A stretch of 64,000 nt of DNA, taken from assembly GCA_022605405.1 (NCBI GenBank), contig JABYQQ010000012.1, positions 248,001 through 312,000 on the forward strand, written 5' to 3'. How positions within the stretch are numbered: the stretch's first letter is position 1; each line of letters starts with the position of its first letter. Shown here piece by piece: positions 16,073-64,000 of the stretch. Made by a program: the position numbers and the translations under genes. The notes under the pieces were generated by a model. The model was not told where the DNA came from and did not search any database. It saw only the letters and a program-made list of their open reading frames with translations. This DNA is from Earliella scabrosa (lineage: Eukaryota; Basidiomycota; Agaricomycetes; Polyporales; Polyporaceae).

Positions 16073-16150
16073 CTTGTTGAGAAGTAGGCCATGTCTGGCA
16101 GAATACAATTGATGAGTGGGGGTATATCCATAAGAAAATTCACCATACTA

Positions 16151-16275
16151 GAGTGTATTTGCAGCGATAAATATCAAGTGGGGCTGGGTGATTCGCCCGG
16201 AATCCAGGACGATGATTGGTTGAGAATGGGCGAATCATACAGCTCCACTTAATATTTATCGCTGCGAATACACTC
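16151..16275. mobile_element. 125-bp palindromic MITE with TA duplication
   Basis: Inverted arms of about 45 nt begin GAGTGTATTYGCAGCGATAA at each end. It is flanked by TA on both sides (16149-16150 and 16276-16277). The related copy H2 has the uninterrupted sequence CATACTATACACTG at the same place, so the insertion is shown by a paralogous empty site. TA duplication suggests the Tc1/mariner or pogo class. Confidence 0.85.
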
Positions 16276-16721
16276 TACTATGCACTGTAATTTATCTATG
16301 GATGCGCATCTTTAATCTTATAGATATAAGAGAATGTTACGTAGTCAACAGTGAATATTTGGTTCAGTTGGAGCCAGAATGTCTCCAAAGCAGTTCCATT
16401 GAACAGAGCTGATTTTTTCTGGTTTCAATAGTGTATAATACTTTGTTGATTGATTATAAACTGACAGAGATACTCAGATACACATTCAAGTCAATACTTA
16501 TGACTATACCTGCCAAATTGGATCACATAGGCGCCCGTTGAGCGCCCATGAGATGCAAATAAAACAGCCCATCCTTCCTGATTTGGGCAATTGTATTTAG
16601 ACTTTAACACATACAGTTTTGGTTAAAAACATATGGTGATATATATCATTTTGTTTCCACAATTTATAGCTACAATCTGAGATTGTCAGAAGTCATGTGA
16701 CCAGGAGCTGTTGAGCACCAT

Positions 16722-16789
16722 CGGCCGAAAATACGAAGCTTCCCCAGCCTTGGTTGAAGCAAGGCTGGGAAGCTTCGGATTTTCGGCCA
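16722..16789. repeat. Long hairpin inside H1
   Basis: Two 30-nt arms around a 7-nt loop (GTTGAAG) with one mismatch and one extra base. The outer part of the stem (GGCCGAAAATNCGAAGCTT) is shared with H2; the inner part, CCAGCCTTG paired with CAAGGCTGG, is not. Confidence 0.85.
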
Positions 16790-17131
16790 TTTGGGTGCTT
16801 ATTTTGCGTTTATATGATATATAACCCCAGTTATAGCTTCAATTACTATGTCACTACTATCAGTGTGCAATGCATAGAACAAAAATATAGCCAGCCATGG
16901 TGGCAGTGCTGTGGACGTCTAACTGGTCCCCGCGCGGCTCAGCCAACGTTAGTCTAGGGTTGGCTCAGTAACAAAGTTTGTTATCAGTGCTTACATCAGC
17001 GCTTACTCGGTTCTTACTCAAAGTAATCACAGTATAAAATATATTCTCACGGGGTCAGGTTCGCGTTACAGAGTTTGACAGAGAATGTCGCCCTTAAAGG
17101 ACGATTTCTTCGTTTCACTCATCAATCATAA

Positions 17132-31639: not shown

Positions 31640-32699
31640 CTTGTTGAGAAGTGGGCCATGTCTGGCAGGGTACGATTGATGAGTGGAGGTATGATATTCA
31701 TAAGCAAACTTACCATACTATACACTGTAATCTATCTATGGATGTGTGTCTCATAGATATAACAAAATGTTACTTAGTTAACACTGAATATCTGGCTCAG
31801 TTGTATCCAGAATGTCTTCAAAGCAGTTCCATTGAACAGAGCTGATTTTTCTGGTTTCAATGATATATAATACTTCATTGATTGATTAGAAACTGACAGA
31901 GATACACATTCAAGTGATTACTTATAACTATGCCTGCCAGATTGGGTAACGTAGGCGCCCGTCGTGCGCCCATGAAATGCAAAAAACAGCCCATCCTTCC
32001 CGATTTGGGCAATTGTATTTTGACTCTAGCACATACAGTTTTGATTAAAAACATATAGTGATATATATTATTTTGTTCCCACAATTTATGGCTACAATCT
32101 GAGATTGTCAGAAGTCATGTGACCAGGAACTGTTGAGCACCATCGGCCGAAAATCCGAAGCTTTCTGTGTCCCAGTTGAAAGCGGGGCACAGAAAGTTTC
32201 GGATTTTCGGCCATTTGGGCGCTTATTTTGCGTTTATGCTGTGCTCAAGTGCCCATTCTTCCCGATATGGGCAAGTTTATTTCTGTTCTAACTCACTCAG
32301 TTTTGTTCGGAAACATATGATAATATAATCAATATGTTCCCACAACATGTGGCTACAATCTGAGGTGGCCATATAATTAAGCGCCCATCGGCCGAAGCTA
32401 CAAAAACGAGTGTGACTGTTGCCAGCATGTCGCACAAATCATTGAATTTGTCAGCGTTTGGGTGCTTATTCACGCGCTAAGGTGGCAGTGCTATGGGCGC
32501 CTGGGGGTCAGGCCAACCCTAGACTAGGGCTAGAGACAGTAAACAGTTTCTTACTGGGCGTCTGCTACAGTAAGTACCGTTACTTACTTAAGATAAGCGG
32601 AGTATGAAAAATGTTCCCACGGGCTCAGGTTTGCGTGACGCGGAATGGCGGAGAACGTCGTACTTAAAGGACGATCTCTTCGTTCCTCATCAATCGTAA
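31640..32699 (-). mobile_element. Family H element, copy H2, inside Copia 1
   Basis: Minus-strand sense: begins TTACGATTGATGAGG and ends with an inverted ATCAATCGTA, the hairpin GCCAgacaTGGC, then CAACAAG. Excising it joins Copia codons exactly with no duplicated bases, so it made no target duplication. Length 1060 bp, non-coding. It shares most of its sequence with H1 but lacks the MITE found there. Confidence 0.88.
32143..32212. repeat. Long hairpin inside H2
   Basis: The same outer stem as the H1 hairpin (GGCCGAAAATCCGAAGCTT), but the inner stem is TCTGTGTCCC paired with GGGGCACAGA, unrelated to the H1 inner stem. The loop keeps GTTGAA. Both departures from perfect pairing are G-U compatible in RNA read from the plus strand. 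Confidence 0.85.
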
Positions 32700-34449
32700 T
32701 CTTCCCATCTCCTTGGACCAGGGAGTACCCGTTGCGCTCAATGGTGCCTGTCGAGAAGATACGACCTCTCAACTTCGGGATGTAGTACACATGGGTGAGC
32801 GCGATCGGTACTTTGTCACCATCAACCCAAGTGTTACCACGGACCGTGCCCTTCCCGAGAGCAAGGATCATGTTGCTCGCATCAGCAGTATTGAAGCTGA
32901 TGGGCGTATCAAACGGTTGATACTCGGAGAAGTCACTTAGGTCGCCCGTGATGTGTTGAGAGGCACCTGAGTCCATCAGCCATGCAGTCCAGTTCTCACT
33001 AGAGGCAACAAGGGCCTCGGGGTAGAAAGAACCAACAATGTTAGACGATGCGACTACATTTACAGACTGAGACTCGACGATGGTATGCGCATGGGGCTGA
33101 TTGTCCTTGTTATTCCCTTTGTCCTTGTCCTTTGCCTTAGCCTTTCCCTTGCCTTTGCCCTTGGGCTTCTTCTCGGGGTGTTTGTCCCAGCAGTTAGACT
33201 CATGATGATTAGAGCCACCGCAGTGAGAGCAAGGACCCTTAGGCTTAGGCTTGGTCTGCGAGACCCGGTTCGCGGATTGTCCGGCCTTGCGCAGTGACTC
33301 CTCGGCCAAGGTCTTGGATATGATGTCCTCGACGGTGACCTTGTCGACGTCGATGGTCGCCATGAGCGCAGAGATCATAGACCGATAAGACTCCGGAATC
33401 TTCGACAGAAGGAGGAGGGCCTTCATCTGGGCAGAGAGCGTCACCTTGTTCTTGGTGATGTCATCCATGCGGTTGACGATACGCATCATCTGATCCTGCA
33501 GGGACTTCTGCTCGTTCATCCGAGGTTCAGCCACAAGGGTCTCGAACTGTCCCCAGACGTGAGCACTGTTCGGCGTGCCAAACTTGTCCTTCAGGGACTT
33601 CCACATGTCTGCTGCGGTCTGTTCCCGAGATGTAGTGGTAGAGGACCCACTGGTTGTAACGGTGTCGAGAATTTCCGCATCGAGGATGTAATGGAAGCTC
33701 TGAGCGACCCGCATGTACATCATGCCGCGAGCCTGCCCGTCGAGCTTGTCCCAGGACTCCTGCTTGTCAGCAGCAGTCGGACGTTTGGTCTTGCCGTTGA
33801 CGACGTCCCAACAGCCCATGAAGATGAAGTAGCCCTTCATCTTGGCAGACCAGTCGGTATACTGGTTCGCCGACGAAAGGGAAGGGATAGAGTCGAGCTT
33901 GACGTCTCCCATGATTGATAAGAGAAAATGCGATGAGTCGAGATAGTCCTCCGAGAAGTCTACAGATGTTGTTACCGGTGTGACCGGCGGAAGCGGTGTT
34001 GCGATAGGAGGAGGTAACTCGACGAGAGGAGGAGGGAGAGTCTCGAATGGCTCAGGGATAACCTCCGGAGTAGGAGGGATTAGGACGATGAAAGGAAGAG
34101 GAGTGGTATAGGGTGTGTCTGATGCGACTGGAAGGGCAGTGTTGACTCCAGCAAGGAAATCCTCCTGGTCAGGAGAGGGGAAAGCCCACTTGAATGTGTC
34201 AGGATAGTCTTCTGGTTGAACGGGAACCCCGTTGTACCGATGAGGACAAGGACTCCGGTGACAGTTGTACCAGAGATTGTCTTCCGAGTAAAGATGAGAA
34301 TCGGCAGGGTATTCCTCGTCTAGGATATGAGGACTATCCCGGCAAGAATCGGCAGTGGGTACGTAGTCAGAGGAGTCAGATGACGACTGGGAGTCAATCA
34401 GATCCTCGACTTCCGCCTCGGAGTGAGGAGATGCTGGTGTCAGCTCCAA
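32700..34449 (-). CDS. gag: Copia 1 gag and protease
   Basis: Starts MELTPASPHSEAEVEDLIDS and runs open to the H2 insertion. N-terminal acidic/Pro-rich region, then the gag core (LDSIPSLSSANQYTDWSAKM, AADMWKSLKDKFGTPNSAHV), a CCHC knuckle CSHCGGSNHHESNCW, a Lys-rich run, and the protease site WLMDSGASQHITGD. The frame reads on into H2 sequence (to 32584) only because of the insertion. In the intact element it would join pol. Confidence 0.9.
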
Positions 34450-34970
34450 AACTGTGGTCTAGAAGGGTGCGATGATTGACGATGCCACGTGCGAAACGGT
34501 AGATGGGGAACACCTATTGAGGCGAGCCAAGAGAGTCAGGAAGCTGGAGATCCCGACAATCTGGATAGAAGTTGCCAACTGTGCCCAGAAAGACTATAGT
34601 AGCTATACGAGAGCAAAGGGTACGGTAAGGAGGGTCCACACGGTTGTCCTCCGTCTCCAAAGGTGATAAGCACCCCGGATACAACTGCTGGCGGGCGCAA
34701 GTGCGTGGCCTGGCAGAGGGATACCTGAAAGCCCAAATGCCTCGAGAGCACAACAGGCTGTACAACAGTACTAGCTACGCGACAACTATACAAAAGCGCT
34801 CAGGGCTGCGTCACGAGCGCAGGAATGTCCCCCTGGCAGCAGTGTCGGCGGGCACAGTCAAGAGGTGAGGAAAGATGGAGGGAGCACGGGCAGAGAGTCG
34901 ACGAAGAGAGAGGTGTGCGCACGAAGATGTCGACGAAGTAGCAACCGGTCAGAGCGCAGGGCTCATAACC
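34450..34970 (-). promoter_or_regulatory. Copia 1 leader with half-tRNA primer binding site
   Basis: The primer binding site is at 34959-34970, directly beside the LTR: sense GGTTATGAGCCC, which is complementary to the anticodon loop of initiator tRNA-Met (GGGCUCAUAACC). This is the half-tRNA priming known for some Copia elements. The leader also holds the segment shared with the Gypsy element (about 34630-34760). Confidence 0.8.
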
Positions 34971-35550
34971 TGATGAACTTCAGACCTGGAAGGCTGGGAG
35001 CCGACTGTAAGTCGAACAGAGAGAGATCTTCAGTCAGTGAGCGAACGACTATATTGCATAGATAAGTACCTGTAAGTCGAACAGAGAGAGACTACAAGTA
35101 CTTAGTCAGTAAGTAAGTAGAGAGCATATGTATGTATGAGACTTACTCTTCAGTCAGTGAGCGAACGACTGAAGAGCAGAGGCGAAATGTGAGCTGCTTA
35201 TATAGACGTAGAGAAGGTAGCTGAGTAAGCGTAGAAAGCAGTCACATGTTAGCCACAAGACGATGAGTAAGAGGCATACGAGGCTATGGTGCGAGGATGA
35301 GTCAGTATGACACGAGGATGAGCACCAAGTCTGAGTCAGACATAAGGTCTGGAACTATCTGGAACATCGTAGAACACACTGGTACGTAGAGGTAAAGTCC
35401 GGAAAGAAAGAACTATCGTACAGATGCAGAGTTATCTATATATAGTAACGAAGAAGCATAGCCCATGCTGTGCGTCATGTGAACGCATAGCCACAAGTCC
35501 ATATGGGGACATATCGGTCCGGACAGTGCCGGATAACCCTAAGTTCAACA
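34971..35550 (-). repeat. Copia 1 upstream LTR
   Basis: 580 bp, nearly identical to the other LTR (about four or five substitutions seen by eye). It has an extra 21 bases near position 35521 (GACAGTGCCGGATAACCC region). In sense it is the 5' LTR and should hold the promoter. Confidence 0.9.
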
Positions 35551-35584
35551 TGTTGCTCACTGTCTACAGTACTACAGTGTAGCG

Positions 35585-36311
35585 CTATGCCGCAAACTTG
35601 ATCACAGTTGGTGGAGAAGCTACCAGCGGATTCCCCCTGTCATCCCGCCCATCAAACATTGCATGAAACCGGTGAACCGGGCTGGGAGTAACGGACGGCG
35701 AGGTTGATGTACTGCATTCACTAGAGATGGCGGAGGCGTCCGAAGGGATTGGAATTGGCGAGGTGCGTAGCTCCTCGAGTCTTCTGCTGGGTGAGAGTGG
35801 GCGTAGGGGAGATGATTCAAGTTGTTGCTTCTCATCGTCGTTGTCGTCGTCTGTTGAATACTCGTTGCCCCCTTCATAACCCTCGCTGAGGTCCCAGAGG
35901 AAACGCTCAGCATGCAGTTCGAGCTTCGGAGGGTCGGGCTGGAGACTGGCGTGAGGTATTGCATACGCCGACTGTGAGAGAGAGAGGGGATGCAACATAC
36001 ATGGCATGTACTGCAGCTCGCCGTGCACCGATGATTTGTGCCCATTCCTTGGAGATCTCTTCCTCTACAGAACTTTGTGATGTTTGGACCTCCATGTATT
36101 GCTCTGGACCAGTGAGCTCACTGTAAACAGTTCGCAAAACGGCGGCTGGAGAAGGGAAGTACAGAATGAAGACTAACACCGAGTACAAGAGCTCGTGCTC
36201 ATAAGTTTGCGAGCTGGGCACGTATTCATCGTTACATTCTGCGACCCTTCGAGAGTCAATGAAGTTCAGTGCCCAGGTATACGACTGGTTCACGTACCAT
36301 TCACGTTGCAC
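35585..36311 (-). CDS. Unrecognised gene near the right end of the Plavaka element
   Basis: I do not recognise the family. The minus strand reads MQREWYVNQSYTWALNF, DEYVPSSQTYEHELLYS, then after a probable intron LTGPEQYMEVQTSQSSVEEE, SKEWAQIIGARRAAVHA, another intron, and PPKLELHAERFLWDLSEGYE followed by an acidic stretch (DDDNDDEKQQ) and a Ser/Pro-rich end ...VIKFAA, stop at 35585-35587. Two or three exons are likely; the start is uncertain. It lies between the Copia LTR and the right inverted repeat, so it is cargo or an accessory gene of the Plavaka element, perhaps separated from its neighbour genes by the Copia. Confidence 0.45.
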
Positions 36312-36583
36312 ACGCAGTCAGCCTTAGAGGGGCCGTCCATAGCGATCAGTTGTGCCAGTCAAAAGACGGATGGGTGCGAGAGTGGCATTCGAGCGCTAAC
36401 TCGAGTAACAAACAAATACTCATGTGCAGCGTTGTTCAATTACACTGCTCTGCAACACTATCGTGCAGTCCGTCCTACAATGTACGTCTATGGTGCGCTA
36501 TCTAGTCCTTGGGGGCGCTATCGGCACTTCGGTAACTCGTGAGGCTAACCAGGTTGCTACTTAGAAAATGGATTTTCCTGATG

Positions 36584-36797
36584 ATCGGACTGGATTGGTT
36601 ATGCAAACACAACCCCGAGGTCGATTGGGACCAAGGGACGTTGAAGCTGTCCAGATGTCCTGCATCGTGTCGACCCTGCGTCGAAGGCCAACTGCCTGCT
36701 CAGACGGACACGCGTGATACGGGGGTTAGGCCTACGGCACGTCAACGTACTCGGCAAGTGCGGAAGGTTAAAGAAGTAGGGAAGATACGGGCTACAG
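36584..36797 (+). pseudogene. Gypsy protease/RT linker segment
   Basis: Continues the Gypsy polyprotein after the Plavaka element with GLDWLCKHNPEVDWDQGTLK, then a basic linker (RPTARQRTRQVRKVKEVGK) up to ATV, where H6 is inserted. The frame resumes after H6 as MVEEDLKPTTP. Confidence 0.85.
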
Positions 36798-38010
36798 TTA
36801 CGATTGATGAGGGTACCGAAGAAATCGTTCTTTAGGGGGCGACATTGCCACTTAGACGGCAAACACCTTTTCGACCCCGTGGGAACAACATTGAGACTCC
36901 GCTTACTCTCTACTTATGCTGTGCTTTTAGATGACATAAGCGCCAGTAACAAAGTTTCTTACCATCAAACCCTGACACAGGGTTAGGATAGGCGCTATTA
37001 GGGTCACATTGACGCCCTGAGCACAGCTTGCCTTTGTATGGCTGGTAGCTGTGGCAGTGATGACCAGTATTAATGCACTGATAGCCCTATTAAATGCCAT
37101 CAAAATGATAAGTCCACTTTCATAATATTTGGATAAGAACTGGCTGAGATATGGCCACAACAGTGTTTATACAATGTGTCTCACTACAGGTCAATGTTGG
37201 TTCGCTAAAAATAGCACTTGGTCGCGGTTTCGTTTGCAAACGAAACCGCGACCATTCGGATCTTCGGGTCCGACGGGCGCTTATTTTGCGGTCACATGAC
37301 TTACATAACTGACTGCGGTGCTTCAAGTGAGATTCTATGCCACTATATCTCTATGTATATATAGACTCGTTATATACCATTAGAAGTGCATCTAATAGGC
37401 AGTCTTTTACAAGTTGCTTATGTAATATTTGCGTATAATGCTGGCTTACAAACAAGTAAACACTGTCTATTACTTGTGTTTGCTTATAAAAAATATGATA
37501 TTATATGTCATAAAGATCACAAAAATGAGCTCTATCTGATGGTGTTATGCACACAAGGTTATATGCATCCATTTATGCTGAAAATCTGAGTTAGTGTGGT
37601 TAAATGTATATAGTCTCAATCATGACTATAGAGAAATATCCAGAGACTGTTTCAAATGTGCATCTTAAAAAGAGGGTTTGCATTAGTTGTTCAGTCATCA
37701 ACTTCACCAGCAAGTCAGGAATAGCATTGAATAGTTGGATAGCAGAAGCATTAGTCCAAATGCTTTATCAGTTTGCTTCACTGCTTGAGGCTCACTTGAG
37801 TGCCATAATGATATTTATTACTAGCTGTGGTAGTTAGTTATTTGTAATATTAGTGAGACTGTAACAATAGCATATGCATTCGAAGAGAACATAGAAAACC
37901 TCAGTTAGACAGGCAAGTTGAATGAAAGACAGGTTGTGTACAAACTACAAACAGTGATATACCAAAATCTCATCAATCGTTTTTGCCATTATGGCCCATT
38001 TCAAACCAAG
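36798..38010 (+). mobile_element. Family H element, copy H6
   Basis: Plus-strand sense: starts TTACGATTGATGAGGG, with an early internal AATCGT that can pair with the terminal ACGATT, and ends with CTCATCAATCG, a degenerate hairpin (GCCATTATGGC) and ACCAAG. Removing it joins the Gypsy codons GCT ACA GTG ATG GTC in frame with no duplication. 1213 bp, non-coding. Confidence 0.88.
37220..37253. repeat. Perfect 34-bp palindrome inside H6
   Basis: Arms of 17 bp (GGTCGCGGTTTCGTTTG and its exact inverse) with no loop, followed by TTCGGATCTTCGGG and GGGCGCTTATTTTGCG, which resemble the flank of the H1 and H2 hairpins. Confidence 0.9.
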
Positions 38011-39344
38011 TGATGGTCGAGGAGGACCTCAAACCAACCACCCCGTCGAGTATACCGGTTGAATGGGATAACTCCGAGAATGCCCTTCTGTACTCCTGGG
38101 AGCAAGGACATGTCTTGTCCAACGCTCCACAACTGTTTGCAATGGCTGGCTACACATACTTGCAGCAGCTTGCAGAGCAGGAGTACCAGAAGAAAGAAGT
38201 GCGTCCGGTGGAACAGATTGTGCCTGAACGGTATCACCAGTATCTACGCGTGTTTTCCAAAGACACATCGGAACGGCTTCCTGAGCATGGACCGTATGAT
38301 CACGCAATTGAACTGGTACCCAAGGCCAAGATGTTCCATTCACGAGTGTACCCCCTCTCCCCCAACGAGCAGGTAGAATAGATAAGTTTCTGCAGGAGAA
38401 CCTGGCTAAAGGCTACATTAGCGAGTCGAAGTCGCCCATTCTGTCGCCCTTCTTCATTAAAAAGAAGGACGGTAGTCTGCGACCCGTACAGGACTACCGT
38501 CGGCTCAACGAGATCACCGTGAAGAATCGGTATCCGATTCCTCTCGTCTCTGAGCTGGTGGATCGACTCAAACAGGCCAAGGTCTTCACTAAGTTGGACA
38601 TTCATTGGGGGTACAACAACATCCGGATTAGGATGGGAGATGAGTGGAAAGCTGTGTTCGTCATGAACCGAGGGCTCTTCGAGTCAAACGTGATGTTCTT
38701 TGGGTTGACCAACTCGCGTAGCACCTTTTCGGCTTTCATGAACGACATCTTTAAGGACCTCATTGTGGAAGGAAAGATCACAATCTACTTAGACAACATC
38801 CTGATCTTCTCCAACGACCTTGAGACACATTGCACCGTTACCCGCGAAGTCCTGAAGAGATTGGCAGAGCATGACCTGTTCTGCAAGCCCAAGAAATGCG
38901 AGTTCGAAGTCCCCAAGGTTGAGTACCTCGGTGTCCTCGTGTCCCACAACCGTGTCGAGATGGATCCTGTCAAAGTAAAGGGTATTCAGAAGTGGCCTAC
39001 TCCCCGCAATGCATCTGATGTCCGGAAGTTCCGAGGATTTGCAAATTTCTACCGCAGATTCATCCAGGACTTCAGTCGCATTTGCAAACCCTTGGATCGT
39101 CTCACCGGCAAAGTGCCCTGGCAATGGGGACAGGACGAACAGGAGGCTTTCAACAAGCTGAAACACCACTTTGTTCAGAATCCGGTGCTGTGCATGTACG
39201 ATCCGAACAAAGACACACGCATCGAGGTGGATGCCTCGGGATATGCAACCGGCGGAGTACTTGCACAGTTACGGGACGATGGCAAATGGCACCCGGTCGC
39301 CTTTCACTCTGAGTCGATGAGTGAGGCAGAGCGCAACTACAAGA
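38011..39344 (+). pseudogene. Gypsy reverse transcriptase and start of RNase H
   Basis: Polymerase region with LSPNEQVE, KFLQENLAKGYI, KKKDGSLRPVQDYRRLN, FTKLDIHWGYNNIRI and KVEYLGVLVSHN. One T appears to be missing at about 38380 (GAATAGAT for GAATTAGAT), giving a frameshift and a stop. The catalytic YxDD is YLDN (YLDNILIF), an Asp-to-Asn change at a metal-binding residue. RNase H begins with IEVDASGYATGGVLAQ and is cut by H3 after RNYK; it resumes after 40021 as YDKEMLAIIRALEAW. Confidence 0.9.
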
Positions 39345-40021
39345 CTTGGAGGGAGTGGGCCATCTTTGGCAGAGACGATTGATGAGGTTAGAATATGAGA
39401 TCCATATAATAATGATGACTATGAAGCAGTATCGGAAGTGCCATAACTAGTATTCCCTATACACAGCCAAATACGTCTACAAGTACTAGACGCCCATTGC
39501 TGAGCAGGCCTCTGGCACAACGGAGGCCTGCCCAGCCGTGACTCAGCCAGTACCATACAGCACTGTGTTTGAGAGGCATCTACATTAAGAGTGTAGTATG
39601 TAGCCATTGTGCTAGCACTATGGGCAATCATGCCTTGGGTTCGTGATTTTATGATGAACAGAAGATAAACTCTGACGAAAAGCTGCTATTCTTGGTAATG
39701 AAAACTTAGAGTTCACATTGTTTTCTCAATAAGATCGTGAAGTTGAGCCACTTTCACCCACAGTGTAGAAGACTTAACTATAGCATTCAAAGGCTAGGTG
39801 ATTGTACTAGTAAGTACGCGTCATGGGCGCCTGTCTAACCCTATAGTGCTTGACCTAACTCTAGCTCGGGATTTGGGCTCATAAGAAAATTAGTTACAAG
39901 CGCTGATGTAAGCATAAGGCTTTAGTAATCGGAGTTTGAAGTCAGTTCCCACGGGGTCAAATCATCGTGACAGAGAATGTTGTCATAAAGAACGATTTCT
40001 TTGTTACCTCATCAATCGTAA
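39345..40021 (-). mobile_element. Family H element, copy H3
   Basis: Minus-strand sense: starts TTACGATTGATGAGGTAAC and ends TCCAAG. Its 3' hairpin is worn (GCCAAAGATGGC). Excision joins AAC TAC AAG ATC TAC GAT, restoring RNase H, again with no duplicated target bases. 677 bp, non-coding. Confidence 0.88.
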
Positions 40022-51112: not shown

Positions 51113-51345
51113 TTACGATTGATGAGGTAACGAAGCAATCGTCCTTTATGTGGACATTGCCTGTCACGACCGATGGACCCCGTGGGAATGTTATTCAAAC
51201 TCCGCTTACCATAGGCTTACCATTACATAAGCGCTAATAAGAAAGTTACTTACCCTTCTGAACCCTAGCTCGGGGTTAGAGCCACTGGCTAGGGTCCCAT
51301 AGCCGCCGGTACACTAGCTACTAATGTCGTCAATATGAGCATTGC
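51113..51345 (+). mobile_element. 5' fragment of a family H element (H7)
   Basis: Begins TTACGATTGATGAGGTAACG with the internal pairing motif AATCGT and the family segment ACCCCGTGGGAATG, CTCCGCTTAC. No 3' hairpin end follows, so it is truncated. The right limit is approximate. Confidence 0.75.
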
Positions 51346-51369
51346 GTATCATATAATAGGCTACTAGTA

Positions 51370-54300
51370 CTATCTGTCCTGCATCAAATTTCTTCTAATG
51401 AAATCCCTACTCATCGCCTCTACCTTAGAAGCTACCACGCTGGCATTCTTATACATCTTGAGGGTCTTCTTCCAATCCTTTGCACTTCGTGGCACCTCCT
51501 TTCCTTGTAGGATTCCGTGCAGATGTTGACTGAACCACTCCTCTTCCCATGCTGTCCATCTTCCCGTATAGAATCCGGCGTCTACCCAATGTCGGTGTTT
51601 TGGCCACCACGACTTATCCGATGTCTGGTTCGACTGATCTGGTATCAGATGAGTACAGTCTCACGACTCACGCATAATTAGTCGATCGCATACCTGTGTA
51701 GACCTTATACACACCACAAATCACGTCCAGTTCATCATCGTCCACCTCGTCATCGAGCAACTCGGTCGTCCCTTGGGGTTGCACTACTTAGTTCGATCCG
51801 AGGATGGTCCCGCACTTGCCCGTCCCAAGCACGTGTTCATCACCTCGATGTCGCCTCCCACAGCCTCTAAACAGATTCGCCAGACTATTCCACCCTTCAA
51901 CATGTACGCCCGGCTTCGCGGCTCGGACATGAGCTCTACGACGCGCTGCATGTACTCTGCGTAATCGTTTCCAGTTGCGACGAACGAGCCTGGTCAAAAT
52001 GGAAACCGAATGGAAGCGGTTGGCGTGGACTTCAGCCTGGGAGCATTTGATGTATCGTTGATGCTGCGTTTGACTGCTGTTCGGAATGGTATTCCGTGCT
52101 GAATGAGGAGTGCTGACGCATCATCTCCACCCCGGATGGACAGGTGACGCAGCAGGAATACGACCGCAGTGGCACTGCAGAGCAAAACCCAGGCATCGCC
52201 GGACAGGTTCGATGGGAGGAGCACATTGAAGTTAAGTTCGTAGATGTACGGTCGGTGCTGATGGTAGTCATCGTTGGCATACCACTCCGCGACGCGTACA
52301 TGTCTCCGGATGTCATTCTTGCAAAGAATGTAGTGGCGCGACATTGGGATGAGATCCCACATCAGCTCCATTGCCTTGTGCGCCGTTCCGCCCGATATCG
52401 CCATACATGCCCATGCAGCCAGCGACGCCTGTTCTTCTGCTCCTGTCGGCATGCTGTCGAGGGTCTGTCCAAATGTCACGTGGAGGTGCTTCTTACAAGC
52501 TTCATAATCGACGTCGTTGAAGCGCTGCGTGATCGGGTGCAAGCCGTACCAGAATCTGATTGAGTCTTCGACGTGTTCCATGGAGGCGTGTTGCGTGCAG
52601 AGATGCCTATACATGGGCTCTACCTCCAGCATCGCACGAGAAGGGTCTGGACATGCGTGCTGCGTGTCATCCCCAGCCTCCTTCACCACCTCCCATGTAA
52701 TGTCCTGCCCAGGATCGCCCTCGGCACCGTTTTCATCCGCTTGGGCTGTGAGCATGTTCTGTACAACGAACGGGAGCTGTGCAATGTCGTCTGGCATCCA
52801 CAGGTCCCATTCGTTGTAGTAGGGGCTATAGTGTCACTGTTCTGGACCTAGGATGAGTGACAGCCCGATCACCGCAACGGGAGGGACTGTAACCCGGATG
52901 GGAAGATCCTGCCAGGTAGGACAAGTGTTTGCATAGCAGTCCTTAATGGACACCCAGACGTATACGCGACTGCGGGGATGGGGATGTGGTCGGGCAACTG
53001 CTTGTCTCCATCGCCTCTGAGTGTTTGCCCTCTCATGCACTGTTTGCCGCTGTTGGATGCGTTGCTCGATAGTGTGCATTCGCGTCAGAAATTGAACCCG
53101 TGTTTCGCCCGGTTTTTGAAATGGTCCATGCGGTGGCTCTCCATCAGTGATGTATGGCTGCGGATGGCGCCGCTCTCTTCCATCCCTGATTAGCGTGAAC
53201 TCCGGCGGCCGTCTGCACGCTACGTCCGTTGTGGGGGGGGACTATTGACTGACCCTCTTTGCATTCCGCCATTGCAATTCTGTCACGTTTGTTCTCCCAG
53301 TGAAAGAACAACGGCACTCGGGCTCGCAGGAGGATGGGGATCAGTTCCAACCATCCACACGTCCGCACTTCCATCACCGCTCCAATGCGCAATCCAGCAG
53401 AGAAGTCGCACACTACAGATTGCTGTAATGCGTCAATCCACGATGTGTGCATTCGCTCGCGACCCAGAATGACGAGCCACTGTACGGTCGTGCTTTCTTG
53501 CGGAGGATGTTCATCTAAGGATAGTGCAATGGCTAGCGACGTGCGGGCCGACATGATGAGTAGGGCATCTCGGGACCGCTGTATCAATGCGCGGGCGTTC
53601 TCGTATGAGACATGCAAGCGTCGGTATCCGGCTTCAGAAGGTTGTGGCCATGCAGGCACACGTTGGACCGCTCTGGCAGCAAGGCTGTTGTTCAACTCAA
53701 GAAGCGCGGTGCACACGCGCCCCATGAATACCTCGAGCTCATACCAAAGCCGTTCGACTTCAGGATCCAACCGCCACCCGCGTTCAAATGATTGGGGCTC
53801 CAGACGACTACTATCGACGCAGAGACGAGATAGCAGTGGATCGGCGACTGGGGTGCGACGCAAGATGAATGCAGCTTCTGGAACTCTGAAAGCTGCGAAT
53901 TGGGGGCGCAATAGGTCCGCATAACGTTTGTTTTCGTCTAGATGGGGGTCGGCACCAGCGGGTAGGCGGATTTCCCGAGGACAATGGGCTACCGTGAATA
54001 ACCGGCCGTCGCTGTCGCAGAAGACGTGCAGTAGAGCTTGCCTGCCTCGCTAAGTCAGTCTCTCTGTAACATCAATAACACCACTTCACCCACCATTCAT
54101 GCTCCATGGCTTATGTTGTGTTGTGTGCTCACGCCCAAGCCAGGCGTAATCTTGAGTCCTTTCTCCTCGTTCTCCCGGTCTTTGCTTGGAGATGTGTGTA
54201 GCAAACGCTCTAGCGGACGACGAACATCCGCTACAGTGTGATTACTTGCACTCATGCTCCTGGTGAACTCGTTGGAGCCCTCTTGCGACTGTTTCTGGCC

Positions 54301-54424
54301 CGGTGGTGCACCGCGTCTGTGCAAGCCGTCCGTCTTCGTCCGACTTCGCGCTTGAATACTCTTCGGTCTCTTCCGCCTCTTCCGCGTTCCTTTCAGGGTC
54401 CGTGAGATCGTCCTGTGGCAACAT
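51370..54424 (-). CDS. Unknown multi-exon protein, divergent partner of the TET/JBP gene
   Basis: I do not know its function; it resembles a multi-copy family of large basidiomycete proteins found among mobile elements (recalled, not searched). Minus strand: start MLPQDDLTDPERNAEEAEET, acidic N-terminus, VRRPLERLLHTSPSKDRENE, then the core 53144-53920 with LIQRSRDALLIMSARTSLAI and ELIPILLRARVPLFFHWENK, the basic region FLTRMHTIEQRIQQRQ with SRVYVWVSIKD, then YYNEWDLWMP, VEDSIRFWYGLHPITQRF, DDELDVICGVYKVYT and a C-terminus SWWPKHRHWVDAGFYTGRW ending at TAG 51370-51372. It needs several introns; near 51790 (after SSDRTK) the frame seems broken, so the copy may be decayed. Confidence 0.6.
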
Positions 54425-54753
54425 TCGATTCAGTACGCAATGCTATAGTATTCCCAGCTTCGTACCAGCTGAAAGTCGAGGCTCCGAGTTGTCCACGTCT
54501 TGAGTGGTCGTCACGAACGTTGAGGGTGAGCGACGAGACTGCCGTGTCTGCATACAAGCTAGAAGTCCGCGAGTTCCCTAAAGCGGCAGGTACATCGCTT
54601 TGGGCGCTTACGCTAATCTAATCCCGCTTATCTTGGCTCGAGCTGAACCTTATCTTAAACTCAACTCGGAGTGGGCGAATTCGGTCAACGGTCTCCCGCC
54701 GACCCTCAAGCCCTTCCGCCCTACATCTCCAGTAACCCGACCCCAGCAATCAA
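54425..54753. other. 5' flank of the divergent gene pair
   Basis: Short frames on the plus strand (for example one containing YLKLNSEWANSVNGLPPTLK) may be remnants of the neighbouring gene, interrupted by H4. I cannot assign them. Confidence 0.3.
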
Positions 54754-57540
54754 CTTGGGTGGGAGTGGGCCATGTCTGGCAGGCACGATTGATGAGATGG
54801 TTGCTCATTATTATTGAGATGCTAATAAATGAGCAAATGATCTACGATCATCACACTGTCACTAAACAATGAGGTTCAAATATACTTGATTTCGAACTTT
54901 TGGTCAAAGCATGAAACATTGCTTGAAGATTTACATTTCATGCAACACTCTTTTGAACTGAGCATTCACTGCTGTCAGATATGTTAGATACTCTCATCTC
55001 TCCATTTTGCAGTGGACGAACTTTTATTACAAACTTTCATTACTTCAATGAACTTTTCCAAGTATGGTATAGAATTCCAAGCTCATTGCGCATGGCTTTA
55101 TGCAGCATAGCATGCCACTGTTTTTGCTCACCATACTAGCTTATTTCTCAACGAAGTGTTTATGTGTTGCAGTATTCAACTTGTAGTGTGACTATGAGGT
55201 GATCTTTGGCTTCTCAATGACACATAATACTTTCCATTCATGTTAGTTCATTTCTTTACAACATTTGTTCATTCATAAAGCACAAGCAGCTCAGAATATT
55301 ACACTACTACTACAGCAAATAACCACTATATTGTGTGCTTTCAATGATACATGTTACTCTACACAACTTTAGAAACACTACATTGTTTATGGAGAGTGAA
55401 AGTTGTAGGTAACACTGAGTTATCAGTACCATTACAAGACCTTACAGAGCCCAAGAGGATGATCATTGGTATCTCCTGTGTTATAAGCTAGTGGTCTTAT
55501 TTTGGCTGGATATATTTCTAGATCAACATGGGCATATGACCAATTGTTCGAGAAGTTGCAATGATTGTCACATTTCTATACTTCAATGTACATATAAGAG
55601 CTCAGTAGTATATGGAATGGATAGAGATGATACAATAGAAGATTATCATGATTTTCCGTAATGTTTGCTATAGAACTGATGGAGTTATTCAGTAAATAGT
55701 AAATAGATCGTTCAGTTGTGATGAGAACATTCCCACGGTGGTGCGATTGAAGAGAGCTCATTTTTTTTCGGTTCTAATGGTATATAACACTCCATACATT
55801 CGTTAGAAAACACTCTGAAGCCAATGGAACTAGTATCTGCACAGTAGCCACTGGATAATCCCAAACTACACAAATTTCATAGAGCTGATTTTTCGGTTCT
55901 CAATGACCAATAACACTTCATTCTTATGACCCTTCATTGTTCTACTAACCAATATTTACTTGTTGATCAAGCACAAACAGCTTGGAATAATACTCTACTA
56001 ACATGCCAGATTTGTGATCTCAATAATATATAACACTTCATACAACTCGTGGTATATAGAAAGTGGAACATGTAAGTAACACTGACCCTGCTTACTGTAT
56101 GCTGGTACACAATAACCAAATGCTGCTAGTTTATACTGTATACTGCAAGAGCATACAAAGCCCACAAGTAAATCAATGACCCATAATGTATGATGCATGA
56201 ATAGTCTACTGGATAACACCTCTACTCTTTATGCTTATGGTTGAGAGTTCAAGTCTGGCTATGTGCATTTTTGAGCTTCAATTTTTCGAACAATTGAACA
56301 TTAGAAATCTAAAAGCATGTTAAATGGTGCATTCAGTAATAATGGAAATATTCCCACAGTAGTGCCATTGAGAAGAGCTCATTTTTCCGGTCCTAATGAT
56401 ATATAACACTCCATGTATTGCATAGGAACCGACAGAGATACACTTTGAAGCAAGTAGTACTAGGTCGTGCACAGCCACATTAATAGGCGCTGGAGAATCC
56501 CAACCTTTGTCGATGGCGCCTATTTTTTAAGCGCCATCGACAAACATTGGGATTCTCCAGCGGCTATTCATGCGGCTGTGCAGGGACTAGAACCATTGGC
56601 TTCGAAGTGTATCCCTGTCAGTTTCTAATGAAAGTATAGAGTGTTATATACCATTAGAATCGGAAAAATGAGCTCTCTTCAATCGCACCACCGTGGGAAT
56701 ATTATCATTACAACTGAACGATCTATTCACTACTTACTGAATAACTCCATCAGTTCTATAGCAAAAATGACGGAAAAATCATGATAATTCTCTATTGTAT
56801 CATCTCTATCCATTCCACATACTACTGAGCTGTTATATGTACATTGAAGTCTAGAAAGTTGACAATCATTGCAACTTTCGAACATTTGGCCAGTATATGT
56901 ATTTGTTGATACGTGTTGAAGTGAATCAAATGAATGTGTAGTGGGTCTAGAAGATCAATATATAATGGACAATGATCTAGTGTGACCAGATATGCATACT
57001 GAAGCCAAATCATGCTCACAACCCAGCCAACCTTCCGCACTTGGGCAAGTGTATATGAGCTATAACTTTTGTACTAATAGTTCATACACACTTGCAGTAA
57101 GTGCATCTAAGAGTGCAGATCATGCCTACCAAACAATATAAAAACATGTTTGTCACAGAGTTACAAGTAGAGACAGTAGTAGATGAAGTCATTAGAAGTG
57201 ATATAAAGAGCCACTAGTAACTAGTAGTATAGACGCCAATGGACCACAAAGCATGTGCCAACACAATGTAGTAAGCGCCGGCCATGCCAGCAGCCGAGCC
57301 ACGGGGGAGAGCATAAGAAAAGTAGTCAATGTGGCTGTGTCCAGTGGTAAGAAACGAGTAAGAAATTCCAACCCTAACCCTGTGGTGGGCGTCTAAAAGT
57401 AAGTAATTTTGTTACCTGAGATGACATAAGTTGTATGGAAGGGTAACAAAAACATTTCCCATGGTGACCGAGTTGCGTCACAAGCGCCGGGCCAAAAGCT
57501 CCCCATAAGAACGATTAATTCGTAAACTCATCAATCGTAA
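54754..57540 (-). mobile_element. Family H element, copy H4, 2.8 kb with large inverted repeats
   Basis: Minus-strand sense: starts TTACGATTGATGAG at 57540, and at its 3' end has CATCAATCGTG, the hairpin GCCAgacaTGGC and CCCAAG at 54754. It is the longest copy in the window and has no coding frame. Inside, 55584-55846 and 56588-56852 are inverted copies of each other, around a hairpin centred near 56525 and a further direct copy of half an arm at about 56335-56490. The motif GAGCTCATTTTTCGGTTC with TATATAACACTC recurs throughout and also in H1 and H2. Confidence 0.82.
56211..56275 (+). repeat. tRNA-like segment inside H4
   Basis: ATAGTCTACTGGATAACACC resembles an A box and GAGAGTTCAAGTCTGGC a B box, about 45 nt apart. 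No stable acceptor stem. It resembles the segment at 13646-13735. Confidence 0.35.
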
Positions 57541-57971
57541 CTCGATGGCGACATCATTTGGCAAGCGCGTGGCCTGGTCTGACTTGTGCAGAGTGTTCGT
57601 CGCTCTGCAGAAGTTCTGGACCAGCCTCTTCGAGTGCGAGGGTTCGCCGACGAGAACGCTCTTCGAGCAAATGTCAAGACGTCCTAACGTATCATCCTCA
57701 CCCGTCCCAGGCGCCCAGCACGCCTCTCAGCTGCACCTAAACGCTGCGTCCGAAGCCCGACATGGTGCCACTGGTCCAGGCAGGTGTTCGTCGCCCCGCA
57801 GAGAGTCTGGAGAACTCGTCTCTGCGCATGCGACGGTTCGGTCGCTACAACCAACGGCGGGCTTCGAGCTTGCCCAACGTATGGGCTAGTCCATGCCACA
57901 GGTGAGACCCTTCCCCGATCATAGCGCCGCTGCTCATCGCATTCACCAGGGCTACAACCGTCTGTGCTGAC

Positions 57972-57997
57972 CAGGGAGTGATGGCCATCACTCCCTG
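57972..57997. repeat. Perfect 26-bp palindrome
   Basis: The arm is CAGGGAGTGATGG with its exact inverse and no spacer. Nearly the same palindrome recurs at 58365-58396. Confidence 0.9.
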
Positions 57998-57999
57998 TC

Positions 58000-58034
58000 A
58001 GAAGTGCGGTCGGCCGACGGCCGCCCGCACTTCT
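58000..58034. repeat. Inverted repeat with GGCCG centre
   Basis: Arms AGAAGTGCGG / CCGCACTTCT around a 15-nt centre that itself contains CGGCCG twice. Confidence 0.85.
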
Positions 58035-58364
58035 CGGCCGGGACTCCAAGTTTGACAGGGTAGGTCATGAGGGACAACGCCGCTCACTCTCTGACGCCAT
58101 ACCGACGTAGACAGAGCATCATATCACCATTGTCATGCGGTCCTGCACACTCGCCGCCCGATTCTCTCCTAAACCTGCAAACCCCAAGCCGGACATAGAC
58201 AGCCCCATACCAAAGCCACCCCACTTGAACATCGGCATCTCCGCCACTTGGCGTAACCTCCGTCGTCGCGTAGCGCTTACCCGTCAGCTGAACGTGAGGG
58301 GTTTTCTCTGGGCCGATCTACGACAGGTCTGAGGGGATGTCCGCTCGGCCGACCATCTGACGCT

Positions 58365-58396
58365 GAGCAGGGAGCGATGGCCATCACTCCCTGCTC
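58365..58396. repeat. 32-bp palindrome with one mismatch
   Basis: Arms GAGCAGGGAGCGATGG / CCATCACTCCCTGCTC, a longer relative of the 57972 palindrome. Confidence 0.9.
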
Positions 58397-58689
58397 GATT
58401 ACGAGGCGCCCGAACCGCTTATAAGACCTTGCGACCGTTTGTCGCCTCTCCAGCCCATCGTGCGCCGGTATTTGCTCGCTCAGTATACTCCTCTGCACGC
58501 CTTATCTGGTATGCTCCTTCTGCCGCCCTCTCCGTATCTCCATCCCATTCCATTACTCATGCACGTGCCTCCCTAGACCTCGTTTCTCGCACATCCCGTC
58601 GGCTCGTTATGGATCTCCCCTGAGACGAACAGTTTCCAGGTACATCACGCATTTGTACTCGCTGTTGCGGTTCATACTGATGCAGTAGC

Positions 58690-61600
58690 TTGCTGGTAGA
58701 TCTTCCTCGTCTTCCTGGCACGCCGCTTCGGGTGCCACATCGCCACCCAATGCTTCCCCGTTACCATGTCCTCGATTCTCACATCAAAGTGGATCCTAGC
58801 TGGGGCCATAACCGTATCCTTGTGGCCTATCGTGACTCCGACCCCTCTGCGATGGAAGAATTCTTCAAATTCATCGCCACAATGCCGTTTCCGGAAGGCA
58901 CCGAGGCAGGGATCGCAGCCGCCGGTAAGTCTCCGTCCATTCGTTCAATACAGCTACTGACCAACATTCAGGCCTTGTTCGTGCGTATGCGGGCGGCTAC
59001 ATCTTTTTCCGAGACACCCGTGGCTCTGGACTCGAAGAAGATGACTCTTTACAGCTTTGGGTGACCATCGTATGTTACAAATGCTTGACTACCCATTCGG
59101 CGCGTTGACATCTATTGTAGCGGGGCGATATCCAGCAGCCACTTCAAGGCCATGCAGCAAGCGCGGGACAAGGCGCTTGGCCCTCGTCACCTCCGCTCTT
59201 CGTCGAAGCCGTCTAAGACTGATGGAGTCTACTCTGGCGGCACGGCGTATGAGCGCAGCGACTCGGCGGCGAACGTGGTCAACGCCCCCCGGTGCTACAC
59301 CTTAGCACAGTCGTACCAAGTCCAGAAGAACGTGGTCGGTCCGACCGCCTCCGCGAAGATCGGCATGGGTGAAGCGCCCAACGCGCACCTCCTTCTACGG
59401 CAGGAGATTGTCAAAGTGAGTCACCTGAGCGCCGCGTATGAACCCCTTCTAACCCACTCTGATCTAGGCTGCAGCTCTTGTGGCTATATCGTCCCTCGAG
59501 ACCGCACCTGCCGAGATCAGCATGGCTCTACGTCGCCAGGCAGAGGTCATCAATTTGCCGCATATCGGGTACGAGGGCAACTACGCGTTCCCTACAATGC
59601 AAGCGAACTTTGCAGCGACTCAGTCACCGGACGCTCTCGCTTGTAAGTATGATATTTATCCATCCAATTCGCTTCGCTGACGACTCCATAGTATCTCGAA
59701 TGCAGCAAGACTTTGGAAGCTTCGGGGGCAAGCACGTCGACGAGCACGACTCCGTTGGCGGCATCACCTCGATGATCACCTACAGCGACTTGGCTGATGA
59801 TGATCATCCTGGATATTTCATCGTTGGCGACTTAGGCGTGGCTGTCTGTATGTATCATAGTTTGTACTGGCGTAACCATTTCCTCACATGGCTGTAGTGT
59901 TGTTGTCGTTCATTATAATCAACTTTTGTGGACGTCACTTCCACGGCAGTTATCCTCCGACCGCTGCTCCGGGCAAGAAACCCAAGAAGTGGTCGTGTCA
60001 CGTCAGCTTCATATGCTATCCTGCCAGCGCCATGATCAACGGTTCCACAAGTCTCAATTTCACAGTCTTACTGGGAAACAAGGTCCTAGCTATGCCGCCA
60101 GAGTTCGTGGACCCCAGGTGCGTACCTTTCCGCCCTCTGCCTTGTCAAGTCTCATGTTGCGTAGGTTTGACGACGCCCATGTCACAACAAACGTGGCGAA
60201 TTGGGTTCACTCGGGCACGTATCTCACCACGCCCCCCTCCTTCCTACGATTCTATTACCGCGCATTTTCCCAACTCGCATACCACCTTGGTCGCCAAGTC
60301 CCTGGAGATGCTCGTATGGAGATCGATTATCAGAAGCTCTCGGAATGTTTCCGGCTCGTTGAGAAGGATGGCACCGAGCATCGCCCAGAGTTCTGGGAGT
60401 TGCATCCTGGATCGTCAGCACAGTCCCGCGAATTCGGTTGCACGCGCCAGGAGACAATTGGGCTTTGGTGCAAACATCACTCTGACCGTGGCAAGTTCGT
60501 CGCACACCACGTTCATCTTGAACTCCAGAAGAAAGGTACGCACTCCTCCGGATCCTGCGGTACTTCTATGACAAATGCGCAACATCCATCATTCGACAGC
60601 TGCTATTGAAAAGGCCCAAAGTGGGCTGGGGAAACGCAAGAGAGACGATTCTGACCAAGTGTTTCACGAGTATGCTGGTGAGCGGAACGCGCGTGCGCTA
60701 CTGAGGTACATACCAAGTTGACGTCAATGTAGCTGGGCCGTCTGCGAAGAAGTCCAAGTCGGGGGTTCACAAGTCATCTAAGGGCCCCAAGAATGCGACC
60801 AAGAAGAAGGGAAATGCCAGGAACAAGACAAGCGTGGTAGTAAGGGGTGGTACGTGTTAGGTCCCGTTGTTCATTTGGAGTCCGTCTGATCAGTTGATAG
60901 CTCATGTGGACGCCATGGACGCACATGACAATGAGGATTATTCTGCCGATATTGAGGACGAATGTGGTCAGTCCTAGTCCTCTTCCTCTTCATAGCTTAG
61001 CCAGTATCTATGCTTTGTCCTCAGATGTGCTAGACGAGATGTCTCGCTGGTTGAATTTGCAGAGCCCTGGTCCGAGCAGTGAGAGATCTGGAGAGGGGCG
61101 TCGCCAGAGCTTGCGTCTTCAAGGCCTGCGACCAGCATCTTCGGCTGCTGTCGAACCGGGTCGTTATCAGCTCTGTCCAAGGAACCGTTAGTGTACTCTG
61201 AACAGTTTACCTATAAATTATTGACGGCACGATGTCCAGCGTTTGGATTCGACAGCGATTCTGAGCTCGAATTGACCAGCGCGCTCAAACGTGCCACACC
61301 AAGTGAACTTCGCCATCAGCTCGAGTATGTTCACTGGGACACAAGTAGTCTGGAAGACGGTACAAGTTAGTATCGCCGAGTCCTCACATTGCGTCGTCTT
61401 GTTAATGCACGCTCGTCGCTATGCCAGGCCTATCGTCCACTCCATCCATAATGCACGCCACCAACCCATCAGCAGCCTCTCAGGCTTGCGAAAATGATCA
61501 TACGGCCTCGTCAGCAGGGCCGCCTCGTCATCATGTTCCTGGTGTGTTTATCGTCCTATATCGACTTCATTGAACCTTATGATCCTTCCCAGCATATCAA

Positions 61601-63713: not shown

Positions 63714-63738
63714 GATATATGCTAAAGACACAAACTAA

Positions 63739-64000
63739 CTTGGTTTAAAGTGGGCCATGTCTGGCATGAACGATTGATGAGTATTTTATTTCACTACTAG
63801 AGATATATTGTACTTCCTGTGTTCATACAGCAGAACATGTATGATACACCAAGACAAATAGTATAAATGTTAACAATTCATACAACCTTTCTATTCAATA
63901 CAATCTTTGTATGATGTTTTACATAATTTTTCAATATATGCAATTAGTATATAGAAGTTGAAGAATATTAACAAAGACTATTGGGTATATGTCAATTGAT
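63739..64000 (-). mobile_element. Family H element, copy H5, 3' end only
   Basis: Shows the family 3' end on the minus strand: CTCATCAATCGT, then the hairpin GCCAgacaTGGC, then AAACCAAG at 63739. The rest lies beyond the window. Confidence 0.8.

What the first reader, a model, noticed from the sequence alone, without database searches (positions are those of the whole stretch)
31640..40021. A mobile family (H) with Helitron-like ends and no target duplication, proved by three repaired reading frames
H2 (in Copia 1), H6 and H3 (in Gypsy) each sit in coding sequence. Removing exactly 5'-TTACGATTGATGAG...CAAG-3' rejoins the codons with no duplicated base: GGG AAG ATG TGC ATC, GCT ACA GTG ATG GTC and AAC TAC AAG ATC TAC. 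Target sites are R^T (A^T or G^T). The 3' end has an inverted copy of the 5' motif, then the hairpin GCCAgacaTGGC, then about 11 nt and CAAG. Absence of a duplication plus a hairpin near the 3' end is the Helitron pattern; the inverted 5' motif beside the 3' hairpin is like Helitron2/Helentron elements. The canonical TC...CTRR ends are missing, so this may be a divergent group.
Basis: partly seen in the sequence, partly recalled or inferred. Interest (0 to 1): 0.88.

Follow-up and report, generated by a model that had tools for sequence, protein, structure and literature searches.

The report
Giant multigene Helitrons and their hitchhikers
In a fungus that is probably a wood-rotting polypore, a family of short jumping DNA pieces inserts without copying its target (beyond at most one base) and has the ends of a rolling-circle transposon (Helitron), and the pieces are likely moved by far larger relatives of about 24 to 28 thousand bases that carry a Rep/helicase gene plus up to five other conserved genes of unknown function.

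Summary
Confirmed and extended. H2, H6 and H3 belong to a family with 171 exact 5' ends and 140 patterned 3' ends in the genome (0 in reversed controls). The host is probably Earliella scabrosa. Empty paralogues were found for all three and six more copies; none has an indel at the junction, one is identical over 240 of 240 bases. The right base is T in 138 of 138; the left is C in 2 of 171. The ends fit Helitron2: 5' T, 12-bp asymmetric inverted repeat, 5' hairpin (38 of 41), 3' hairpin. The predicted autonomous relative exists: five 23.7-27.9 kb elements have these ends and an open Rep/helicase frame. Both giants read in full carry HUH, Y2 and Walker motifs and share up to five further genes; all six coding units show protein-level conservation. 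A sixth giant, broken, starts in the window at 51113. Corrections: target D^T, not strictly R^T; a one-base T duplication cannot be excluded. New: size and conserved gene set. Not shown: movement, gene functions, Helitron2 phylogeny.

The parts
31640..32699 (-). H2: non-autonomous element (1060 bp) inserted in a Copia coding sequence, A^T
   Evidence: boundaries; empty paralogues, 8 of 8 read loci exact at the junction
32686..32697 (-). 5' copy of the 12-bp asymmetric inverted repeat of H2 (the element's leading TT is 32698-32699)
31655..31683 (-). 3' copy of the inverted repeat (31672-31683) and hairpin GCCAgacaTGGC (31655-31666) of H2, then 15 nt to the CAAG end
36798..38010 (+). H6: non-autonomous element (1213 bp) inserted in a Gypsy coding sequence, G^T
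   Evidence: empty site L002, 91%, no gap
39345..40021 (-). H3: non-autonomous element (677 bp) inserted in a Gypsy coding sequence, A^T
   Evidence: empty paralogues, 8 of 8 read loci without a gap
16073..17131 (-). A further H copy whose two inverted-repeat copies are each mutated at their CpG; right flank T, left flank T
51113..64000 (+). 5' part of a giant autonomous-type element (W); 3' end placed at contig C12:331820-331863 from a pattern match only
51448..54049 (-). Giant W gene 1 (unknown family; the match is in pieces in this copy)
   Evidence: tblastn from giant A, best E 1.8e-64
54754..57540 (-). H element (2787 bp) nested in giant W
   Evidence: its own empty site was not tested
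58771..60534 (+). Giant W gene 2 (multi-exon; homologues in Daedaleopsis and Polyporus)
61592..63593 (+). Giant W gene 3 (unknown family; match in two pieces, one stop)
   Evidence: tblastn E 1.5e-118
63739..64000 (-). 3' end of another nested H element (1057 bp in all; its 5' end is beyond the window at C12:312795)

Best explanation
H is a family of non-autonomous, Helitron2-type elements that are likely moved in trans by 24-28 kb relatives with the same ends, which encode a Rep/helicase protein predicted to copy the element as a single strand by rolling-circle replication and paste it before a target T. Shown: exact ends; no target-site duplication of 2 bp or more at the empty sites found; T after every 3' end tested; a 12-bp asymmetric inverted repeat; 5' and 3' hairpins; HUH, two-tyrosine and Walker A/B motifs in the open Rep/helicase frames of giants A and B. 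Inferred: Rep nicks at the 5' T; the helicase peels off the strand; the 3' inverted copy plus hairpin marks the stop; the freed strand is joined at a D^T site. Also inferred: the other conserved genes (up to five) serve the giant itself, since they are kept as proteins across divergent giants instead of decaying like captured fragments.
For: Genome counts 171 and 140, 0 in controls. Nine of nine copies with a found empty paralogue rejoin without an indel at the junction, one at 240/240. Right base T 138/138, left base C 2/171. 5' hairpin 38 of 41 against 4.3% chance per copy. Of the 100 listed 5' and 100 listed 3' ends, five isolated pairs of 23.7-27.9 kb enclose a Helitron_like_N match 5.7-5.9 kb before the 3' end, with open frames of 2581-2647 aa. 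All belong to one Rep type: 19 of 68 genome matches are of it, while none of the 24 matches of the commonest other type lies between listed H ends. Giant A protein: DUF6570, Helitron_like_N, PIF1. Giants A and B: HLH, YVADYITK, GGMAGTGKS and DE motifs, invariant or nearly so in a 22-row alignment with 21 of the 120 listed homologues. Helicase match to Helraiser 7lcc, E 6e-10. Short copies share 5' ends with giants: up to 97% of the 80 nt after the motif with type A, 91% with type B. Six coding units in the same order in A, B and W; codon position 2 > 1 > 3 in 12 of 12 comparisons.
Against: No transposition, circle or strand polarity was observed. A test of whether the 5' and 3' ends of 36 short copies pair with the same giant type was not significant (p = 0.68); the 3' ends do not discriminate. 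No named Helitron2 protein was at hand, so the phylogeny was not tested; the Helraiser match is in the helicase only. The single T leaves the cleavage point open. Only A and B were read whole; for three giants only the ends were read, and W is broken. Three more Rep matches of the same type lie between listed H ends in crowded clusters, with ambiguous pairings of 7.0 to 33 kb, so shorter Rep-bearing elements are not excluded. Fetch limits stopped further reading.
Confidence: 0.88

Rival explanations
1. The giants are ordinary short Helitron2 elements that captured neighbouring host gene pieces, so the extra genes are passengers without a role.
For: Helitrons are known for gene capture; fungal and maize cases are reported (PMC6431247 and PMC4289320, passages). 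Pairings of 7.0 and 8.3 kb with an H-type Rep are possible in clusters.
Against: The same coding units stand in the same order and strand in A, B and W, although A and B are only 37-62% identical as proteins; codon position 3 is far less conserved than position 2 in all six (the alignment is guided by the proteins and uses matched stretches only, which favours positions 1 and 2 somewhat).
Confidence: 0.1
2. H is a cut-and-paste DNA transposon with a one-base T duplication and a degenerate inverted repeat.
For: The data cannot exclude a 1-nt T duplication.
Against: The inverted copies are asymmetric (2 bp from one end, 30-33 nt from the other), hairpins sit at both ends, and elements with the same ends encode Rep/helicase; no transposase family was hit in the eight giant A frames scanned.
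Confidence: 0.03
3. H is a canonical Helitron1 with drifted ends.
For: A^T is the commonest target (25 of 41), as for canonical Helitrons; the 3' hairpin ends 14-15 nt from the terminus.
Against: No TC start or CTRR end; it has an asymmetric inverted repeat and a 5' hairpin, which canonical Helitrons lack according to PMC3627910 (passages).
Confidence: 0.08

Closest known systems
Helitron2 (PMC3627910, passages read)
   Same: 5' T; 8-15 bp asymmetric inverted repeats, the 5' copy 0-2 bp from the end and the 3' copy about 20-30 bp from the end just before a hairpin; 5' hairpin overlapping the repeat; insertion mostly without duplication
   Different: Target D^T here versus TTTT^T/C in their Chlamydomonas example; 3' copy 30-33 nt from the end; 24-28 kb with up to six conserved genes, where PMC4067079 (passages) describes a single Rep/helicase ORF for Helitron2
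FoHeli elements of Fusarium oxysporum (PMC5148889, abstract and passages)
   Same: Fungal, asymmetric inverted repeats, hairpins, non-autonomous companions
   Different: Start TCAG or TGCCT and end ATTTT or CTCCTGT; TNAT^T target in two subgroups; about 6-7 kb for FoHeli1
proto-Helentron-Pi of Phytophthora infestans (PMC4067079, passages)
   Same: 5' TT, A^T target, no duplication, several genes beside Rep/helicase, about 14 kb
   Different: Ends in CTAG; described there as structurally more like Helitrons than Helentrons; carries a SET-domain gene, not seen in the frames scanned here
TET/JBP-bearing Helitrons of fungi, including a Helitron2 of Agaricus bisporus (PMC12730594, abstract and passages)
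   Same: Fungal Helitron2 with an extra gene
   Different: Gene 2 here matches no TET/JBP or other dioxygenase family in Pfam
HELPO1/HELPO2 of Pleurotus ostreatus (PMC4289320, passages)
   Same: Agaricomycete Helitrons; HELPO1 carries extra genes, 1.5-13.7 kb
   Different: TC/TG start and CTRR or CTTG end; Rep/helicase about 1400 aa; extra genes described as captured

Membership tests
Helitron superfamily | Rep (HUH, Y2) joined to a PIF1-type helicase in an element with the same ends | tested here: met
Helitron superfamily | Insertion without target-site duplication | tested here: met
   9 of 9 empty sites without an indel at the junction; a single-T duplication cannot be excluded
Helitron superfamily | Rolling-circle transposition, circular or single-strand intermediate | not testable with these tools
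   Needs bench work
Helitron2 | Asymmetric terminal inverted repeats of 8-15 bp, the 3' copy just upstream of the 3' hairpin | tested here: met
   12 bp, 2 bp from the 5' end and 30-33 nt from the 3' end, slightly more than the 20-30 given; definition from PMC3627910
Helitron2 | 5' hairpin that includes part of the 5' repeat | tested here: met
   38 of 41 exact 5-6 bp stems
Helitron2 | 5' terminal T | tested here: met
   TT in all exact copies, but these were selected with that motif
Helitron2 | Rep/helicase clusters with Helitron2 proteins | not tested
Helitron1 (canonical) | TC...CTRR ends | tested here: not met
   TT...CAAG
Helentron | AP endonuclease domain fused to Rep/helicase | tested here: not met
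   Pfam scan of the giant A protein shows none; a cysteine-protease-like C-terminus is there instead (inference)
DDE terminal-inverted-repeat transposon | DDE transposase in the autonomous element | tested here: not met
   No such family in the eight giant A frames scanned, which cover part of its genes

The most novel reading that the evidence does not exclude
These are the first members of a class of giant Helitrons: 24-28 kb rolling-circle transposons with a fixed, selected set of five or six genes that act together for the element, so that Helitrons, too, evolved large multigene selfish elements comparable in scale to Polintons.
Probability: 0.5. Interest if true: 0.78.

Novelty: new variant of a known kind. 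Interest (0 to 1): 0.62.

Why it matters
Large Helitrons are usually explained by random capture of gene pieces. A giant Helitron with a conserved, ordered set of genes would mean that rolling-circle transposons can build and keep their own accessory functions. Giants with open Rep/helicase frames, many short companions with the same ends and a base-exact empty site make transposition of such a large element testable in what is probably a wood-decay fungus.

Tried and rejected
Gene 2 as a TET/JBP-type dioxygenase: an H-x-D ... H ... R pattern by eye (recalled motif) suggested it. Pfam gave no match above cut-off, the PDB profile search none, PF20515 no match in the genome (no control rang, so absence is not shown), and the AlphaFold model is unusable (pLDDT 31.9). 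Kept only as a lead. Gene 1: no Pfam or PDB match; AlphaFold pLDDT 49.8, pTM 0.31, Foldseek best E 2.3, not interpretable. Gene 3: no PDB match and one Pfam match below cut-off. Pairing of short copies with giant types by both ends: not significant. Third nested insertion in giant W: joined flanks found no match in giant A. Rows left out of the 41-copy count: L062 (3' end lacks CAAG), L086 (5' end only), the copy at 16073-17131 (mutated motif), the copy at 63739 (cut by the window end) and giant W (3' end not read). Two of the 140 patterned 3' ends drop out of the 138 because the second pattern asks for CAAG. The L060 and H6 self-matches are not empty sites and were not counted. Empty paralogues were found for 7 of the 41; H2 and H3 came; the other 32 were not searched genome-wide.
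Full report
Observation. All three target genes were compared with other copies of the same retrotransposons. H2: the 40 scored hits (of 50 candidates) match the joined flanks over all 200 bases at 97-99%, and 8 of 8 loci read are identical around the junction. H3: 34 hits, of which 31 have the full 200-base span at 92-97%, one is a 79% match of 207 bases, and two are the halves of the filled site; 8 of 8 loci read have no gap. H6: one empty copy, 91%, no gap. Six further copies (L050, L058, L067, L071, L073, L075) have empty paralogues among sequences in hand, none with an indel at the junction. L071 has a 2-base gap nine bases away, and in L075 (70% identity) the empty paralogue differs in the bases next to the junction. 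L058 matches its empty site at 240 of 240 bases.

Target. Among 41 copies with both ends exact, the left base is A 25, G 11, T 5, C 0 and the right base T 41. Flank identities reach 1-3 bases in 7 of 41 copies and never 4. Genome-wide, C precedes 2 of 171 exact 5' ends, and T follows 138 of 138 ends with CAAG. Because the element also begins with T, insertion of TTACG...CAAG before T, of TACG...CAAGT after T, and of TACG...CAAG with a duplicated T cannot be told apart.

Anatomy. The ends are TT + ACGATTGATGAG at the 5' side, and CTCATCAATCGT + 4-5 nt + GCCA-loop-TGGC + 14-15 nt ending in CAAG at the 3' side, in the ends printed. The start of the 5' repeat pairs with ATCGT or AATCGT about 25 nt on, exactly in 38 of 41 copies, against 4.3% chance per copy. 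These are the features by which PMC3627910 defines Helitron2 (passages).

Autonomous relatives. PF14214 has 68 matches in the genome. The tools list 100 of 171 5' ends and 100 of 140 3' ends, and only those could be paired. Five isolated pairs enclose such a match: C4:908030-934939 (A), C1:5133704-5160489, C6:1711969-1739844, C3:1746366-1773705 (-) and C6:2096182-2119911 (B), 23.7-27.9 kb, with the Rep match 5.7-5.9 kb before the 3' end and open frames of 2581-2647 aa. All five are of one Rep type (a 639-base match), which makes up 19 of the 68; none of the 24 matches of the commonest other type (660 bases) lies between listed H ends. Three more of the 19 lie in crowded clusters (C1:888157, C3:1657135, C4:2548333), where the pairing is ambiguous: 8.3 or 33 kb, 7.0, 25.7 or 31.8 kb, and 11.6, 30.8 or 34.3 kb. 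Shorter Rep-bearing elements are therefore possible. Rep fragments elsewhere also fall between distant ends by chance. A and B were read in full: 26,910 and 23,730 bp. The giant A protein has DUF6570, Helitron_like_N and PIF1. HLH, YVADYITK, GGMAGTGKS and the Walker B acidic pair are present in A and B; B's aligned 2583 codons hold no stop. A C-terminal region has invariant Cys, His and Asp (C2126, H2340, D2356 of the 2395-aa piece) and two CxxC pairs, one Cys of which is only nearly invariant, in 22 aligned proteins; reading it as a cysteine protease is inference.

Gene set. Six-frame comparison of A with B and with W shows the same series: gene 1 (-), gene 2 (+), gene 3 (+), gene 4 (-), gene 5 (+), Rep/helicase (+). 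Gene 5 may be an upstream part of the Rep/helicase gene; this was not resolved, so the extra genes are four or five. In 12 of 12 comparisons identity falls from codon position 2 to 1 to 3 (0.30-0.45 at position 3). A and B show no stops in the aligned stretches; W has one in gene 3 and two in Rep/helicase. The alignments are guided by protein and limited to matched stretches, which favours positions 1 and 2, but not to this extent with 37-62% identity over 209-2503 codons (inference). Gene 2 has 5 homologues: three in Daedaleopsis nitida, one each in Polyporus arcularius and Earliella scabrosa. Gene 1 has 6, one named, from Ganoderma adspersum. In both searches only about 8000 candidates were scored. 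The gene 2 homologues have no Pfam match above cut-off; for gene 1 none was listed.

The window itself. A giant (W) starts at 51113 with left flank A. Its gene 1, 2 and 3 regions lie in 51448-63593, and H elements are nested at 54754-57540 and from 63739. Beyond the window its Rep/helicase match is broken by frame changes and by another H element at C12:327757-328833.

Host. The partial protein P0123 of Earliella scabrosa lies on a contig of 2,655,327 bases, the length of contig C6 here. The identification rests on that.

Mechanism. Ends, target and enzyme fit rolling-circle transposition by a Helitron2-type Rep/helicase; the strand steps are inferred from known families. That the giants move the short copies is inferred from shared ends: 5' identity is up to 97% of 80 nt to type A and 91% to type B, while the 3' ends did not separate the types (20 AA, 5 AB, 8 BA, 3 BB; p = 0.68).

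Novelty. In the passages read, fungal Helitrons reach about 14 kb and maize ones 39 kb with captured fragments (PMC6431247), and a 14-kb multigene proto-Helentron is known (PMC4067079). The listings (15 of 24 shown; 10 of 54 shown) gave no title or abstract describing giant Helitrons with a conserved gene set; the library lacks most subscription journals. I file it as a new variant of Helitron2, with the protein tree still untested.

Noticed in passing
window 16073-17131: An H copy in which both inverted-repeat copies carry the change expected from CpG decay. The 36 short copies together have CpG observed/expected 0.71, their flanks 0.76, the giant A Rep/helicase gene 0.42, giant B 1.02 and the window 0.90.
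   Followed up: partly
contigs C1, C2, C3, C4, C6, C8 of G000: Of the first 100 listed 5' motifs, about 80 lie in nine dense regions, perhaps centromere-like retrotransposon islands.
   Followed up: no
L050, L067, L073, L075: The flanks of these four short H copies match Rep/helicase genes of giants: the family repeatedly inserts into its own likely autonomous relatives.
   Followed up: partly
G000: Other Helitron Rep lineages: 32 of the 68 matches span 657-675 bases, many in frames near 2000 aa; one such copy (L025) is the empty site of an H element.
   Followed up: no
window 32145-32212 and 37219-37254: A 29-bp inverted repeat (93% complementary) with a 10-nt spacer inside H2 and an 18-bp perfect palindrome inside H6.
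   Followed up: no
[quoted passage not shown]
   Followed up: partly
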